Shown one piece after another: positions 2,513-31,495 of a DNA stretch of 31,495 nt. The translations under genes were made by a program, and so were the position numbers. The stretch is from IMG/VR virus record IMGVR_UViG_3300025913_000942, positions 1 through 31,495 of that record, one strand, 5' to 3'. The notes below the pieces were generated by a model. The model did no database searches, was not told the origin of the DNA, and was given only the letters and a program-made list of their open reading frames with translations. How positions within the stretch are numbered: position 1 is the first letter of the stretch; each line of letters begins with the position of its first letter. This stretch comes from a virus.

Positions 2513-5500
2513 ACGATTGCCTCAGCAGGATACCCTCTGCCAACAACGGTAGAGAGTTGATAAACTTTAATATGAATAGGTTGGCCTAGCGTCAATCCGT
2601 CACTGGTTTGCTGTGTTGTGGTGTAGTTTGCACTTTGACTTGATGAGGAAATCGTCCTTACAATTGATGTGCCAACAATCACATCTACCTCATAGGCTTC
2701 AGTAGTCTCGCCCAGTGATACATCTACGTTATCACGCCACTCACCACCCACACGCGTACGCCTAATCCAATTAAAGGTAACATTAAGGCTGCTATCGCGT
2801 TTAGCGGCCACTTGCACAGGCGAATAGGGCTTTAATCCTATTGATCGGTTAGTAAAGTGTTTGCCAAGGGTAGCGTCTTGAGACATGCCTAAGGTGACAG
2901 CTTTATAAATTTTGGTAGAGCCAATAGCACTAGAGTCTGTTACGACACGCTGTACGGTGCTTTCAGTTAAGAGAGTAAATTCTTCATATAAGACATGGGA
3001 TGCTGTTGCCCATTCTGTGCCGAACCGTCCGCGTAAAAAATAAGATAAATTGTAAGTACCATCCGATTGCAAAATCGCATCACGAAATTGAATAAGCTCA
3101 CTGCCTAATACCGCAAGGTTTCCACCGGCTAAAAGCTGCGAATCCGTAATACTGGATAACTGTTCATTATTCAGTAAACGAACATTCACAGTACTGGCTT
3201 GGTCAGGAATAGTGGTTAATCCATTCCCTAAAATGGTATTAGCAATACCGATAGTAGAAGCCGTAATAAATACTTTAATCTGATTCCATGCGGCGCCATC
3301 CGGTGACTGTATAAGCGATGCACCTTTCCAGCCATCGTAATATCCTGACGCTGCCGCATAAAATCCAGGATTATCATCAATGTTTCTGACAATAGGAATA
3401 TCCATAAGATGTAGCTCTGTTGGTCCGGAAGGCGCCAATGTTTGCTGTGGGACAATAATTGTACTGCCACTGACATTGGAGGTATAAACAGCAGAATCAT
3501 CAGCTGTCCCCTGCAACAATAAAATGCCAGGCGCTCCCATTTCAACACTGGTTAAGCGAGAGGAAAAGGTAGCACTATCCGTTTGAATAACGACCACATC
3601 ACCTGGCTCTAAGTAAAGGTATTCCATTCCTAATGAAAATTGATGCGTTTCTCTCGACATCCAAATGCCATACAACATGGTATCGGCAATTTGCGCTGCT
3701 TGATCATCTGACATCACAATCGGGAGTTCTAAGGTATTCTCATTAACCGAGTTTACCTGTATGCGCGCTGCATACTGAGCACCGGGTTGATAATCTGCGC
3801 CGGTATTCACATAGGTAATATTGACTCGTTTGGGCAATTCTAAATCTTGCTGACGCGTCACCGTGACAATATCGGGTAGTTCATTCCCTTCGGCATGAAC
3901 AGCAAGATCATCTTGTTCAATGGTGACAACCGGCGCTATTCCACGCGGAATGAATTTTATCTTTCCACCCGATTCTGCCGCATCAAAGAAGTAAGCGCTC
4001 ATTAATTGTTGCAGAGCGGAGCGAATCGTCGTTTGGCGGCTGATAGTGTAGCCCAGCAAGGTACCATTTAATAAACTGACATCAACATCATCAGCGGTCA
4101 GCTTGGATAACTGGCAAATCTCTGAAACCATTTCCGATAATGCTGGATTGCCTGCCGTCGCTATCTGCATTCGAGTGAAAACACAAATCTTATACCGGTT
4201 CGTCACCCAGCACATCCCACTGTCAGCCATGATAGAGGGATAAGCAAAGCCATCCAATTCAGTAGCGCTACTAAATACATGGGTTACACCCGTAGGTTCA
4301 ACACGATAACAGTCAACAGGCTTTGATCCTGAACCATAAGCCACCCAAACATGCTTATAGTCGTTTTCCATGACACCTGCATAGAAGGGATAGGCGACCA
4401 GCAAACCGGCGCGATTTCCCACACCAAACTGATTGACTAGCCCAGCAGGAAAACCCACGGCACTACCGCTAGCCTCTACCGTAACGCTGTTACCGTTCAA
4501 GTAAATTAAATACCAGGTTTCAGGTGTACAGTTTGAACCAAAAGGATAATTACCTCGCCCACAAATGATCATGGCACGCCGCTGATCGGCTGAGACGACA
4601 AAGCCCAGCAATACTTGCGTATTATCTGCAACGACACTCAGTACATTAACCGTGCGGGTATCCTGAAAGTCAGCAGAGAAATTAATATTATTAGGATAAA
4701 CCCATATTTGTGGTGGTGTTTCGGTGACACCGGTGTAAGGATTGATACCACTAAACGGGAGATGAAAATTTCCTGCTATAGCCAACGAATAACCATTCAG
4801 GCGACCACAGTTGTAAGACATTTGATCGCCATAAGCATCTACGCTCGGGTCACGGGCCGTATAGCCAATAAATTGTCCACTCGTATTCAGCAGCCTTACC
4901 GTCCCGTCTTGTTGATTTAATACGCGCAGCACGCCATTTTGCATGGCAGTAAACACATTACTGTAGCTTGAGGTGGGATCACCCCAGAAATAGCTAGATA
5001 CTACCGTATCAAATTTTTTGCCATTTTGTGGGTTGGCGCTTTTAAACACTTCCACGGTAACATTGGGAATGCGCCGGCCATAGTCATCTATTTGTATATC
5101 TTGCAAGACAACATACGCACTCCCGCGATAAGCAGGCACATTCCCGTAACCTTTATCGGATTGAATCGTAGGATCGGGTAATTGGTTTTCATCTCCGGTA
5201 TAGAAAGCAATAGAAGTCGCTTTAGAGCTACCCGCATAGACACCACCCGCAGTCCCACCACGGGCATCATAAAACAAAGTACCGTCTAACCAGATACGAC
5301 CAAAGCCAGATACGGGCCCACGGCAAAGAAGTACCGCTAAACTGGCAGTATAGGTGTAAGTCGTTTGTGTTTGCGTCGTTTGGCCACCACCTCCGCCACC
5401 GCCACCTTTACCACCTCCGCCGCCACCGCTACTAACCGTAGTTGTGGTCACATGCTCCACAATAGGTGGTGCCCAAATAACACTCCCTGCAAGGCGATTG

Positions 5501-10075: not shown

Positions 10076-10598
10076 AGTCCGCACTCATGTTTTTCTTTGA
10101 GAATATTGAAATAAGCCGCCCAGCCATAAATCTCCGATGCAGGCATATTTAAGATTTCACCGACAGTTTTATGCAAATGCTCTGCCAGTTGAAACATAAA
10201 AAATAGCTCTGCATCGGACGTTAGTTTTTTTCGGCTTCTTCCACGGTATTTTTAGTCATGCTATCTTGTTCACCCATTCGACCAATGATGTCGAGAATAA
10301 CCTCGGGATCAACTTTGCGTAGTAACTCACCGCGTTCTACAGCGCGAAACATGGGTGTCTTATCAGCATTGAGGGCTCGCACAATTAAAATATCGACACC
10401 TGCTTCAACGGTTTCTTGCGTGGCATAGTAGACGACTTTGGAGTAATCCTTAACCGGCAGGGTACTTAAAGGCCGAAAATAAATAAGGGTTGGGTTACCG
10501 TTTTCATCCGGCCACTGTTTAACCTCTAAAGATAAGATGCCCGCAGCCTCTACTTTTTCCCGGTATTGTTTCATTGCCCGATCTAAAATTGAGCTCAT
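10072..10598 (-). CDS. gpGT: frameshifted tail assembly chaperone
   Basis: A -1 frameshift at A AAA AAC (10230-10224) at the very end of the gpG frame bypasses its TAA and adds 50 residues, giving a 175-aa product that ends at TGA 10074-10072. The extension reads LTSDAELFFMFQLAEHLHKT, followed by VGEILNMPASEIYGWAAYFN and ILKEKHECGL. The section with S-E-x-x-x-W-x-AYF is the hallmark of lambda gpT-type extensions, and its stop overlaps the tape-measure ATG. In lambda and many long-tailed phages a few percent of ribosomes make this product, and gpG plus gpGT coat the tape measure during tube assembly. The slippery heptamer is in the correct zero frame (GAA AAA AAC TAA). Frame, position, family features and junction all agree. 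Confidence 0.87.
10221..10598 (-). CDS. Tail assembly chaperone gpG-like
   Basis: This 125-aa acidic protein is the unshifted product of the G/GT pair. It starts at ATG 10598, two bases after the tail tube stop. It contains no membrane segment and has an acidic C-terminus (SMTKNTVEEAEKN) typical of gpG proteins, which end exactly on the slippery sequence. Residues 28-60 (WPDENGNPTLIYFRPL, then KDYSKVVYYATQ) resemble the tail assembly chaperone families, and a run of alpha helix follows (EVILDIIGRMGEQD). It binds the tape measure protein and keeps it soluble while tube subunits load. The position between the tail tube and tape measure genes is diagnostic. Confidence 0.85.
   Translation of the reverse strand: MSSILDRAMKQYREKVEAAGILSLEVKQWPDENGNPTLIYFRPLSTLPVKDYSKVVYYATQETVEAGVDILIVRALNADKTPMFRAVERGELLRKVDPEVILDIIGRMGEQDSMTKNTVEEAEKN
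10224..10230 (-). other. Programmed -1 ribosomal frameshift site A AAA AAC
   Basis: The heptamer is in the X XXY YYZ register of the gpG frame (GAA AAA AAC TAA) and directly precedes the zero-frame stop, so pausing at termination may help slippage. Seven consecutive A residues are followed by C. The -1 frame stays open for 50 codons and encodes a recognisable gpT extension. I did not find an obvious strong stimulatory hairpin immediately downstream. Confidence 0.87.
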
Positions 10599-10993: not shown

Positions 10994-11399
10994 GTTGTTT
11001 CTCCTTGATTAATTATTAAACATTTAGTGCCGCCAGAGGGTAATATCTTTGCTAAAATTTAAGGTGGAGACTTACCATCTCCGTGTCGCTTTGGTTAAGC
11101 GGCTAGGCAATAACGCTTGGGAGTAAGAAGAACTCCTAAAGACTCAAGCGGTTGCCGAAACTCGATAGCCAACTGATCAAGGGCTATTGACGACGTAGCA
11201 ACGCGTCGTTAAATAACGCGGCGAATTGGTCGTTCGCTCGCGAGTGAACGTAATCAGGATATTTGAAATGATTACACTCACGGTAAAAGTAGAGATAGAC
11301 GCAAAAGTAGCAATTAAGCTCATGAGTTTTATGATCGTGGTTGCTAAAATTGTTCTATTACTACTTTAAAAACCCGGTGAGGGCGTAAGCCCTTGCCGC
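10994..11399. other. 406-bp structured intergenic element between U and tail tube genes, function unknown
   Basis: This is the only long gap in an otherwise gapless late operon. On the + strand it folds by eye into consecutive hairpins: GGAGA/TCTCC (11066-11082), CGCTT/AAGCG (11087-11101), a nested three-part stem GGCAA/TTGCC enclosing CGCTTG/CAAGCG enclosing GGAGT/ACTCC (11106-11156), ATAGCC/GGCTAT (11165-11187), ACGACG/CGTCGT (11190-11209), a 9-bp stem at 11231-11250 and AGGGC-GTAA-GCCCT (11380-11393). The GNRA-type GTAA loop and a G.T pair in the 11231-11250 stem favour the + strand as the RNA. A 33-codon + strand ORF (11268-11369, preceded by AGGAT) and a 48-codon - strand ORF (11177-11323) with a hydrophobic start also occur. 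I found no recognised intron, IS or known RNA family. Only the tail tube ribosome binding site (10998-11008) is explained. Confidence 0.55.
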
Positions 11400-11855
11400 T
11401 TAATTTAAAGAAATATTGGGTGATTCGTCGGCTACCCGATAATCCACGGTAAATACCATCTCAGCACAACCAATAGGCTGCTCGCCACCATTCTCAAGAA
11501 GGATGGTGGTATGTAACCAATTAAGGTCTTTCGCAAGGCCGCCGAGTGTTTTGTTACTGGCAAGTGCAATACGCACTTCGAGTTCAACTTGGTCTAGCAC
11601 ATCATCTACATTAGCAGTGCCTTTAGCATAGGCTTTTACCATCAGCTGTAATTGGCACCATTGTTTAACAACGCCGCCACTGGCTGAAGCAAATTGCTCA
11701 TTAGCTTGGTCAGATTCTGTCTTGATAATCAAGCCGGGTAAGGCAGCGCTTTCTAGTGGATACACTCGCGAGACAAAAATACGAGTACCCGTCGTTGTCA
11801 GATTATTTAATTGCTGTGCAATGGCATGACGAATTTGCGTTCTGACATGCGACAT
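11400..11855 (-). CDS. Minor tail protein U-like (tail terminator)
   Basis: This 151-aa protein occupies the lambda gpU position after Z and before the tail tube gene. It starts at ATG 11855, directly at the Z stop (TAATATG). The N-terminus MSHVRTQIRHAIAQQLNNLT, followed by RIFVSRVYPLESAALPGLII, matches the tail-terminator pattern (an early helix, then a V-Y-P-L strand and LPGLxI). The remainder is an alternating alpha/beta domain ending with EMVFTVDYRVADESP. The gpU ring caps the finished tail tube and joins it to the head. Identification rests on the N-terminal pattern, length and gene order. Confidence 0.8.
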   Translation of the reverse strand: MSHVRTQIRHAIAQQLNNLTTTGTRIFVSRVYPLESAALPGLIIKTESDQANEQFASASGGVVKQWCQLQLMVKAYAKGTANVDDVLDQVELEVRIALASNKTLGGLAKDLNWLHTTILLENGGEQPIGCAEMVFTVDYRVADESPNISLN

Positions 11856-22664: not shown

Positions 22665-22996
22665 GGTATTTTTACCTTTGCAGAAATTTCATCCGCTACT
22701 TTTTGGTTATCCACCATCACACCGACAGAGAAGCAAAATAACAATGTTGCCAAAATAACAGGCCAAAATTTTAAGATCGCTTTAATGAATGCTGTGCGCT
22801 CTACGTGAGATAACATAAACTCTTCCAATCGTTGTAATCGCTTATCCGCCTGTGACGTTTTTCCCATAAAGGAATCTAATTTTTCGATTAAGATGAGATG
22901 TTTTTCTGTCAGGATAGTGACTGTAATTTTTAGCTCATTTAACTCGTGCGATAGTTGATAAATTTTCTCATCCTGATGTTCTATTTGTGATTTCAT
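22661..22996 (-). CDS. Coiled-coil membrane protein, first late gene (possible lysis accessory)
   Basis: This 111-aa protein has a charged N-terminal coiled coil (about residues 1-70, including DEKIYQLSHELNELKITVTI) and one membrane helix near the C-terminus (ILKFWPVILATLLFCFSVGV, about 75-94). It ends with a short basic tail. It is the first gene after the Q-controlled terminator and is coupled by ATGA to the endolysin. Position and shape suggest a lysis accessory, antiholin or spanin-like protein, but there is no clear spanin (Rz/Rz1) pair. The ribosome binding site is poor (ATG at 22996, upstream TGATGATAATTT). Identity is not recognised. Confidence 0.68.
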   Translation of the reverse strand: MKSQIEHQDEKIYQLSHELNELKITVTILTEKHLILIEKLDSFMGKTSQADKRLQRLEEFMLSHVERTAFIKAILKFWPVILATLLFCFSVGVMVDNQKVADEISAKVKIP

Positions 22997-23027
22997 AAAT
23001 TATCATCAAGTAAAAAATGACAGGCAT

Positions 23028-23063
23028 AAAAAAAGCCAGGCTTTATGATTCAAAGCCTGGCTT
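23028..23063 (-). terminator. Rho-independent terminator upstream of the late genes (tR'-like)
   Basis: On the - strand a perfect 12-bp stem, AAGCCAGGCTTT / AAAGCCTGGCTT, with a 7-nt loop (GAATCAT), is followed by a run of seven T's. It lies about 63 nt after the predicted start of the strong late promoter and before the first late gene. A Q-type antiterminator gene sits directly upstream. This is the pR'/tR' arrangement, where Q lets RNA polymerase read through into the late genes. Confidence 0.88.
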
Positions 23064-23132
23064 AACAAAATGCTAAAAAGGAGAAATCTGTACTTGGCAG
23101 GTCGTATGCGCAATTATCACATCATAGATAAA

Positions 23133-23162
23133 TTTATACCAGAAAGTGCTAGACAGTTTCAA
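23133..23162 (-). promoter_or_regulatory. Late promoter (pR'-like)
   Basis: On the - strand TTGAAA (23162-23157) and TATAAA (23138-23133) are separated by 18 bp, and the -10 is preceded by TGG, giving an extended -10 (TGnTATAAA). Transcription would start near 23126. The only product without antitermination would be a leader RNA of about 60-100 nt ending at the terminator at 23063-23028. The Q-binding element is expected around here but cannot be identified by eye. Confidence 0.75.
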
Positions 23163-23176
23163 GTGCCTGTCAGCAC

Positions 23177-23569
23177 CTAAATTTTTCGATAGGGTACACT
23201 CAGCCTTCCCGCTAGCCAGTGCCGACCCATATCCACGTAGGTACGGAATCTAGCATAGGAGATTTTCAGTAACTTGGCATGTTCGCGAGATTTCCGGCGG
23301 CCAAGATAGCCAAAATACTGACAGCGGAGTGCTAAAGCAATCGTATTATTTTGCCTTGCTATTTCCTTCACCAAGACTTCAATTTCTTCTGCTTCTTCGC
23401 TATAGGGTAAAGGCTTAGGGCCACTACTTTTTACGACAATACCCTCTGTCATGAGCCTGTACTCTAACGAGTAAGGAGGATAACCAAGACCGTACAAATT
23501 ACCACGGCTATACCACTCTGCCCATTGCTGTAGGCGTTCTTCTACGTATTTCATGAGGGATTCATCCAT
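23177..23569 (-). CDS. Q-like antitermination protein
   Basis: This 130-aa protein (start ATG 23569, directly after the previous stop; a TTG at 23587 is an alternative) resembles the antiterminator Q family of P21/82-type phages (PF06530). It begins with VEERLQQWAEWYSRGN, the family's R-L-x-x-W-x-x-W opening. The C-terminal half has a sigma-region-4-like helix-turn-helix: ALRCQYFGYLGRRKSREHAK, then LLKISYARFRTYVDMGRHW. It would bind the pR' DNA and load onto the paused polymerase to read through the terminator 23063-23028. The gene ends less than 20 bp from the promoter it would control. Confidence 0.82.
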   Translation of the reverse strand: MDESLMKYVEERLQQWAEWYSRGNLYGLGYPPYSLEYRLMTEGIVVKSSGPKPLPYSEEAEEIEVLVKEIARQNNTIALALRCQYFGYLGRRKSREHAKLLKISYARFRTYVDMGRHWLAGRLSVPYRKI

Positions 23570-29987: not shown

Positions 29988-30221
29988 ATGAATGAGACCA
30001 ACCAAAACTACACCCTGAAATGGGTAAAACTCAAAAAATATTGCCAAATTTCAGGCGATACGCCTGACGCAGTCCATGCCAAACGCCGAAAAGGCACCTG
30101 GCTTGATGACGTGCACTGCAAAATTGCACCAGATGGTAATTTATGGATTAACCTCGTAGAGATAGAAAAATGGGTGGAAAGCGGCACACTGGCGACACTA
30201 CAAATGCTCCGACAGGTATAG
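29988..30221 (+). CDS. xis: Excisionase (Xis-like)
   Basis: This 77-aa protein starts at ATG 29988. WVKLKKYCQISGDTPDAVHA, RRKGTWLDDVHCKIAPDGNL and WINLVEIEKWVES are typical of the phage excisionase family (winged-helix, P22/lambdoid type), with a W-x-L-x-KYC-xxSGDTPDAVHxRR core. It bends the attachment site and directs integrase to excision. It overlaps the integrase start by 52 nt, the usual xis-int coupling. The ribosome binding site upstream is weak (TAGGTACTCCGAGCT). Confidence 0.86.
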   Translation: MNETNQNYTLKWVKLKKYCQISGDTPDAVHAKRRKGTWLDDVHCKIAPDGNLWINLVEIEKWVESGTLATLQMLRQV

Positions 30222-31495
30222 AAGTTCGTCAATGGAAAAGCAACAATAGTACAATACGCCTCCATTTTCATTATCGTGGCGTATATTGTCGTGAGCCATT
30301 AAATATACCTGCAACATCCAATAATCTGAAATTTGCCGCTAATCTGCGTGGCGAAATTTTGTTAGCCATTGCAAAGGGCACGTTTAATTATTCTAAGTAC
30401 TTTCCTCATTCAAAAAATGCAACGCGCTTTGGTTACAAACCGCTTTCCAATATTACCGTAGGTGAGATGCTAAATAATTACCTTGAGGATATAAAACGAA
30501 CTTTAGAGTTTAGTACCTACGATGGTTATCATAAAAAAATTCATCGCTATTTAATGCCTAATTTTAAGGATATTCCTATCAGAGAATTAACACCTGCCAT
30601 GATTAGAGAGTGGGTAAAAAATTTTAAACTGACTTTGAAAACAATAAAAAATACTTTAATCCCGCTTCGCGCTATTATTGCCACAGCGCTAGTAGATGAA
30701 ATCATCGATAAAAATCCGCTTGATCATATTATCTTAACAAAGCTTGTTAGCAAGGAAACTAGTGAAAGTGATTATGAAGTAGATCCATTTGATAAAAAAG
30801 AAATTGAAGCAATATTATCTACAGCTGAAGGCCAGGTTAAAAATTTATTTCAGTTTGCATTTTTTACTGGATTAAGAACATCGGAATTAATTGCACTTGA
30901 ATGGAGTGACATTGATTGGGTCAATGCGCAAGTTTATATCAGTCGAGCATTTGTTTCAGGGCAAATTAAAACAACAAAAACAAAAGCAGGTAAACGTCAG
31001 GTTCTGCTATTACCGCCCGCGCTAGAAGCACTGAAAGCTCAAAAAATCCACACCTTTATGGAAGGCAAGCATGTATTTCATGCTCCGTTCTCAAAACAGC
31101 CCTGGTCATCACCTTTTCAAATTCGGCACGCTGCTTGGTTTCCTTTATTACGTCGCGCGGGAGTACGTTATCGTAATCCTTATCAGACACGCCATACTTA
31201 TGCCTCGATGATGTTGTCTAAGGGCGAAAATATTATGTGGGTAGCAAAACAAATGGGACATGTTAATACGGAAATGGTAATGCGGACTTATGGCAAGTGG
31301 ATTCCGGACACTTCAGTTGTGACAGGTTATAAGCCTCTAAATGATTGGAACCAGCACCTTGATTTAAGCAAAGAACACTCTCCCGTGTGTCTCCCGCGAG
31401 CCCAAAATGCAGACGATTTTAAGAACAAAGTGTTTATAAATCAAAACGTTAATCTGGCGTCCCCAAGGGGATTCGAACCCCTGTTACTGCCGTGA
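30170..31495 (+). CDS. int: Tyrosine integrase; C-terminus runs into tRNA-Glu
   Basis: This 441-aa protein has an N-terminal arm domain of the DUF3596 type (GIEVRQWKSNNSTIRLHFHY, then NLRGEILLAIAKGTFNYSKY with FP), a SAM-like core-binding domain and the catalytic domain. Catalytic residues: Arg in FFTGLRTSELIALEW, Lys in TKTKAGKRQV, His-x-x-Arg in RNPYQTRHTYASMML, His in AKQMGHVNTEMV, and the nucleophile Tyr in RTYGKW. The last 13 codons (LASPRGFEPLLLP and TGA 31493-31495) are the antisense of the tRNA-Glu T-arm and acceptor. The start at 30170 lies inside xis; the arm domain reads from residue 15, so a later start would lose little. Confidence 0.93.
   Translation: MGGKRHTGDTTNAPTGIEVRQWKSNNSTIRLHFHYRGVYCREPLNIPATSNNLKFAANLRGEILLAIAKGTFNYSKYFPHSKNATRFGYKPLSNITVGEMLNNYLEDIKRTLEFSTYDGYHKKIHRYLMPNFKDIPIRELTPAMIREWVKNFKLTLKTIKNTLIPLRAIIATALVDEIIDKNPLDHIILTKLVSKETSESDYEVDPFDKKEIEAILSTAEGQVKNLFQFAFFTGLRTSELIALEWSDIDWVNAQVYISRAFVSGQIKTTKTKAGKRQVLLLPPALEALKAQKIHTFMEGKHVFHAPFSKQPWSSPFQIRHAAWFPLLRRAGVRYRNPYQTRHTYASMMLSKGENIMWVAKQMGHVNTEMVMRTYGKWIPDTSVVTGYKPLNDWNQHLDLSKEHSPVCLPRAQNADDFKNKVFINQNVNLASPRGFEPLLLP
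31455..31495 (-). tRNA. 3' part of tRNA-Glu(UUC), the likely attachment site (partial)
   Basis: Read on the - strand, the 41 bases begin TCACGGCAGTAACAGGGGTT and end CCTTGGGGACGCCA. They match E. coli tRNA-Glu from the second base of the anticodon to the CCA end with only two changes that I can see. The T-arm (AGGGG-TTCGAAT-CCCCT) and acceptor strand are intact. The 5' half lies beyond the right edge. Phages with an integrase next to a tRNA commonly use its 3' end as attB. No copy of the sequence is visible at the left end of the window, so the other attachment half is outside it. Confidence 0.85.

What the first reader, a model, noticed from the sequence alone, without database searches (positions are those of the whole stretch)
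10994..11399. Unexplained 406-bp structured element inserted between the U and tail tube genes
All other late genes touch or overlap, but here about 400 bp hold no clear gene. The + strand contains at least seven separate stems, including a three-level nested stem at 11106-11156 and a hairpin with a GTAA (GNRA) loop at 11380-11393. A G.T pair in the 11231-11250 stem favours the + strand, i.e. RNA antisense to the late operon. It does not look like a group I or II intron core, an IS or a known RNA I recall. It may be a novel ncRNA, a mobile structured element, or a packaging or recombination site.
Basis: partly seen in the sequence, partly recalled or inferred. Interest (0 to 1): 0.72.

Follow-up and report, generated by a model that had tools for sequence, protein, structure and literature searches.

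The report
Orphan folded element between tail genes
Between two tail genes of a temperate bacterial virus sits a separate piece of about 309 bases that folds far more tightly than chance and may encode a tiny membrane peptide, but no relative of it was found in any collection searched, so its function can only be proposed.

Summary
The fold signal lies in 11095-11403 (z -7.7 on +, -7.3 on -). The remaining 101 bp up to the tail-tube start, 10994-11094, are unstructured (z about 0). A 13-nt inverted repeat (TTAAGCGGCtAGG / CCTtGCCGCTTAA) bounds the folded part and closes it into a multi-branched domain. Relatives lack it: their terminator and tube genes either nearly touch or flank a 47-62-codon gene. 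No homologue was found in IMG/VR, phage, plasmid or E. coli records or about 900 genomes, and Rfam has no match, so covariation cannot be tested. The strand is not settled; G.U pairs lean to + but not significantly. The + strand carries one further non-random feature: a Shine-Dalgarno-led 33-codon ORF (11268-11369), the most hydrophobic of 58 such ORFs in the window (0.13% of shuffles), with its start codon at the edge of a stem-loop. Best reading, at 0.35: a phage accessory unit encoding a translation-restrained hydrophobic peptide, working like a type I toxin mRNA; no antitoxin or toxicity is shown. Rivals are a new non-coding RNA, a TTAA-flanked mobile element, and a cis-element of the late mRNA.

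The parts
11095..11403 (.). the structured element proper, 309 bp
   Evidence: fold z -7.7 (+) and -7.3 (-), flank 10994-11094 z about 0; bounded by the inverted repeat
11095..11107 (+). left arm of the terminal inverted repeat TTAAGCGGCTAGG; closes the multi-branched fold
   Evidence: forcing the arms to pair costs 0.5 kcal/mol on +, part of the MFE on -
11391..11403 (-). right arm of the terminal inverted repeat (overlaps the stop codon of the tail terminator gene)
   Evidence: 12 of 13 complementary
11106..11156 (+). three-level nested stem
   Evidence: mean pair probability 0.86-0.93
11163..11209 (+). two adjacent hairpins (11163-11189, 11190-11209)
11217..11242 (+). hairpin with one bulge, 10 bp
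   Evidence: mean pair probability 0.98
11244..11281 (+). hairpin that holds the Shine-Dalgarno AGGA (11256-11259) at its loop and the start codon of the ORF at the loop/stem edge
   Evidence: mean pair probability 0.99
11268..11369 (+). 33-codon ORF, MITLTVKVEIDAKVAIKLMSFMIVVAKIVLLLL, candidate membrane peptide
   Evidence: most hydrophobic Shine-Dalgarno-led short ORF in the window, 0.13% of shuffles, single helix in AlphaFold2
11286..11367 (+). long imperfect hairpin (33 bp on +) covering most of the ORF
11375..11398 (+). 10-bp hairpin with GTAA loop, possible + strand terminator with a weak T tract
11050..11058 (+). possible extended -10 (TGCTAAAAT) for a + strand transcript; no -35, chance-level motif
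   Evidence: 9 matches in the window, 4.9 expected
10994..11094 (-). unstructured leader of the tail tube gene with its Shine-Dalgarno AAGGAG (about 11001-11006)

Best explanation
A self-contained accessory unit ('moron') of a temperate phage, set between the tail terminator and tail tube genes and read on the + strand, opposite to the late operon. Its RNA folds into a chain of hairpins that can be closed by pairing of its two ends, and near its 3' end it codes for a 33-residue hydrophobic, probably membrane-inserted helix. By analogy with type I toxin mRNAs, the fold (start codon at a stem edge, coding region inside a long hairpin, 5'-3' end pairing) would keep translation low. Antisense RNA, which the late transcript itself would supply during lytic growth, would anneal to it and shut it off. 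Shown: fold, boundaries, absence in relatives, and an ORF whose hydrophobicity exceeds chance. Inferred: transcription, translation, restraint by structure, membrane activity, antisense control.
For: The structured part has sharp ends and an end-pairing repeat. Among 58 Shine-Dalgarno-led ORFs of 20-60 codons on both strands of the window, this one has the highest hydrophobicity (19-residue mean 2.48; next 1.93). 0.13% of dinucleotide shuffles give such an ORF at a cutoff of 1.8, and 0.07% give it near the 3' end. 3' placement just before a hairpin. Single confident helix from sequence alone (mean pLDDT 86.6). Ends complementary at 12 of 13 positions, reached in 0.2% of shuffles. Known type I toxin mRNAs show the same anatomy: short hydrophobic helix, structured 5' region sequestering the ribosome site, 5'-3' long-distance pairing (PMC7708055, PMC8309996, PMC6733600).
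Against: No homologue of the ORF or the element anywhere, so no conservation of the reading frame. No good sigma-70 promoter on either strand; the extended -10 motif is at chance level. The + strand terminator has a weak T tract. The - strand folds almost as well. No antitoxin RNA identified. The hydrophobicity criteria were chosen after seeing the peptide.
Confidence: 0.35

Rival explanations
1. A new structured non-coding RNA. The 309-nt domain, closed by its terminal stem and carrying about seven helices, acts as RNA (strand unsettled) and the ORF is accidental.
For: z of -7.7/-7.3 with sharp ends; helices lie almost back to back in the 341-nt + fold, z -8.1; no Rfam family; the closed multi-branched fold is the MFE on -.
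Against: No homologues, hence no covariation; the hydrophobic Shine-Dalgarno ORF would be a coincidence of order 0.1-0.4%.
Confidence: 0.27
2. A non-autonomous mobile element. The 13-nt terminal inverted repeat with TTAA at both ends is read as terminal repeat plus a 4-bp target duplication; the element landed between two genes without breaking either, and a transposase elsewhere moves it.
For: Terminal repeat with TTAA on both sides; absent from the same site in all relatives; removal of one TTAA plus the insert would leave the terminator gene's stop codon intact (sequence).
Against: Single copy in the phage. No second copy by blastn in about 900 genomes. No viral contig with the same repeat pair at this spacing. 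The host genome is not available, so host copies cannot be excluded. Multiple internal hairpins are not typical of such elements.
Confidence: 0.2
3. A cis-acting element of the late mRNA (- strand). The folded intercistronic block uncouples tail tube translation from the upstream gene or shields the downstream mRNA, raising tube protein output.
For: Position directly upstream of the most heavily needed tail gene; - strand z -7.3; a stem that starts at the terminator gene's stop codon.
Against: Relatives do without it, with gaps of 1-68 bp or a small gene; the 101 bp next to the tube start are unstructured; wobble pairs lean towards +.
Confidence: 0.12

Closest known systems
Type I toxin mRNAs of the TisB, ZorO, ShoB and DinQ kind (Enterobacteria) and AapA (Helicobacter)
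   Same: short hydrophobic helical peptide near the 3' end of a highly structured RNA; ribosome site in a hairpin; complementary 5' and 3' ends as in hok and aapA
   Different: no sequence similarity (no Pfam or NCBIfam match), no identified antitoxin RNA, no strong promoter, and located antisense inside a phage tail operon
Phage morons
   Same: extra DNA between two late genes, absent from relatives, possibly with its own promoter and terminator
   Different: promoter and terminator are weak here and the product is not a recognisable gene
Large phage- or prophage-associated structured RNAs in Rfam (such as GOLLD, HEARO)
   Same: hundreds of nucleotides with many helices in a phage or mobile context
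   Different: no match to any such Rfam 15 family even at E up to 10, and no known homologue
Miniature inverted-repeat elements
   Same: terminal inverted repeat, short, non-coding, possible TTAA target duplication
   Different: no other copy found; internal multi-helix structure

Membership tests
type I toxin-antitoxin toxin gene | small (under 60 aa) hydrophobic peptide with a predicted helix | tested here: met
   33 aa, mean hydropathy 2.48 over 19 residues, single helix
type I toxin-antitoxin toxin gene | match to a described type I toxin family | tested here: not met
   no Pfam, NCBIfam or PHROG hit up to E 10
type I toxin-antitoxin toxin gene | antisense RNA antitoxin with its own promoter | tested here: inconclusive
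   no sigma-70-type promoter found on the - strand; host promoter rules unknown
type I toxin-antitoxin toxin gene | toxicity on expression | not testable with these tools
   needs an expression test in a laboratory strain
Rfam structured RNA families (group I and II introns, HEARO, GOLLD and others) | score above the family's gathering threshold | tested here: not met
   no family reached its threshold
structured non-coding RNA | covariation across homologues | not testable with these tools
   no homologue found
miniature inverted-repeat transposable element | terminal inverted repeats and target duplication | tested here: inconclusive
   13-nt repeat with TTAA ends, but TTAA is its own complement and may be part of the arm
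miniature inverted-repeat transposable element | multiple copies in host genomes | tested here: inconclusive
   none found in sampled genomes, host genome not held

The most novel reading that the evidence does not exclude
A previously undescribed class of large, closed, multi-branched RNA carried as an accessory unit in a phage tail operon, possibly a dual RNA that both folds as a regulatory domain and encodes a membrane peptide.
Probability: 0.2. Interest if true: 0.7.

Novelty: new variant of a known kind. Interest (0 to 1): 0.45.

Why it matters
If it is expressed, a translation-restrained membrane peptide or large RNA would sit antisense inside a phage tail operon, where the late transcript itself would be its natural antisense switch. 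That would link lysogeny and lytic growth to a small peptide or RNA in a way that can be tested directly. It is also a clean example of an orphan structured element that current RNA and protein libraries cannot name.

Tried and rejected
Known RNA families: none. Decayed coding gene: no ORF of the element tested matched Pfam, NCBIfam or PHROGs, and the relatives' 47-62-codon gene at this site is not visible in it (six frames). tRNA or tmRNA: none in the window. Homologue searches that found nothing: blastn in phages, plasmids and E. coli genomes; DNA patterns and translated frames in IMG/VR, where the six hits share only the 17-22 nt around the GTAA hairpin; a 21-mer in GTDB genomes; blastn and covariance-model searches in sampled Gammaproteobacteria, a Legionella-like family and the wider phylum, whose few E 1e-2 to 1e-4 hits are isolated stretches of 20-44 nt. 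The translated-stop trick is weak, since patterns that cross a read-through stop cannot match. The pattern had the wrong spacing and says nothing. REPIN-like reading of the GTAG...CTAC ends of the long hairpin: dropped, since the element occurs once. Csr-type sponge: too few GGA loops (by eye).

Full report
What is there. The window is a virus record of 31,495 bases whose late genes run on the - strand. The other late junctions near it are tight. The one other gap, 10085-10220, is filled by the classical -1 frameshift extension of the tail chaperone gene (slippery A AAA AAC near its stop). So this is the only unexplained gap in the tail genes.

The fold is real. The stated interval has z -6.7 on + and -4.7 on -. 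Against some 300 windows of 200 nt over the rest of the phage (mean z -0.4, sd 1.2), windows in this interval take most of the top places. Trimming shows where the signal is: 11095-11403 has z -7.7 (+) and -7.3 (-), whereas 10994-11094 has z -0.4 and -0.2. The first 101 bp are therefore just the leader of the tube gene, and the element is about 309 bp.

Boundaries. A 13-nt inverted repeat, TTAAGCGGCTAGG at 11095-11107 and CCTTGCCGCTTAA at 11391-11403, coincides with the ends of the structured part. Such a long-range repeat occurs in 6 of 300 shuffles and in 0 of 71 other 427-nt windows of this phage. On the - strand it closes the minimum-energy fold into a multi-branched domain. On the + strand, forcing it costs only 0.5 kcal/mol. 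It could be a terminal stem, or a terminal repeat with a TTAA duplication.

Strand. On +, helices lie almost back to back from 11085 to 11398 with high pair probability, and the main ones hold 12 wobble pairs against 2 on -. A strand-symmetric helix search, however, gave only 5 against 3, and the z values differ little. The + strand is favoured, not shown.

Is it in relatives? Thirteen loci in IMG/VR and seven in GTDB genomes encode a related tube protein (26-50% identical). In those where the upstream junction could be read, either the two genes nearly touch (gap 1-68 bp) or a gene of 47-62 codons lies between them, often with a GW motif and a lysine-rich end. None has the element. The terminator protein ends at its usual place, so nothing was truncated. 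The window lacks the small gene.

Homologues of the element. None by blastn in phages, plasmids and E. coli, by patterns and translated frames in IMG/VR, by a 21-mer in GTDB genomes, or by blastn or a covariance model in sampled genomes. The model does find the window itself. The scattered weak hits are isolated stretches of 20-44 nt. Covariation can therefore not be tested.

A hydrophobic ORF. On +, an AGGA at 11256-11259 precedes ATG 11268 and a 33-codon ORF, MITLTVKVEIDAKVAIKLMSFMIVVAKIVLLLL, which ends five bases before the last hairpin. It is the most hydrophobic of 58 Shine-Dalgarno-led ORFs of 20-60 codons on both strands of the window. 23% of shuffles contain some Shine-Dalgarno-led ORF of at least 20 codons, but only 0.13% a comparably hydrophobic one, and 0.07% one near the 3' end. 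In other loci of similar G+C fetched here the rate is 0.0036 per 400 nt of strand. These tests were designed after seeing the peptide, so the numbers flatter it. AlphaFold2 without an alignment gives one helix (pLDDT 86.6), as expected for such a sequence. Its start codon sits at the loop edge of the 11244-11281 hairpin, and most of the frame lies inside the long 11286-11367 hairpin.

How it may work. The anatomy resembles type I toxin mRNAs: a short hydrophobic helix, a structured 5' region that hides the ribosome site, and complementary ends. For tisB the ribosome site is sequestered and translation needs a standby site far upstream (PMC7708055). ZorO is restrained by its 5' region (PMC8309996). 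Toxin mRNAs such as aapA use 5'-3' long-distance pairing and transient hairpins (PMC6733600). Here the late transcript would be a perfect antisense RNA, so a + strand unit could act only while the late operon is silent. All of this beyond the anatomy is inference. The weak points are the lack of a convincing promoter, a weak T tract after the last hairpin, and no recognisable antitoxin.

Verdict. A genuine, discrete, orphan structured element. I put 0.35 on a translation-restrained small membrane peptide unit, 0.27 on a pure structured RNA, 0.2 on a mobile element with TTAA ends, and 0.12 on a cis-element of the late mRNA. Without homologues or RNA data it cannot be taken further here.

Noticed in passing
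window 10085-10598 (-): Tail chaperone gene with a -1 slippery A AAA AAC just before its stop and a -1-frame extension (KKLTSDAELFFMFQLAEHLHKTVGEILNMPASEIYGWAAYFNILKEKHECGL), a classical gpG/gpGT frameshift.
   Followed up: partly
window 31455-31495: The record ends in the 3' part of a tRNA-Glu gene (on -), the likely integration site; the adjacent integrase (30170-31495) is 68-70% identical to one beside an intact tRNA-Glu in another genome (L055).
   Followed up: partly
window 22996-23177: Intergenic stretch with z about -5/-4.5 built round a perfect 12-bp hairpin flanked by A and T tracts, a likely bidirectional terminator; a second set of arms TGACAGGCA/TGCCTGTCA surrounds it.
   Followed up: partly
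L002 3854-3997, L004 3868-4023, L005 3843-4031, L025 232-381, L028 about 4383-4519: A small unnamed gene (47-62 codons, GW motif, lysine-rich end) sits between the tail terminator and tail tube genes in several relatives and is missing in others and in the window.
   Followed up: partly
L057 5549-5954: tmRNA with tag ANDENFAGGEAIAA beside a related integrase; recalled from memory as Legionella-like, which suggests (without proof) a Legionella-related host group.
   Followed up: no
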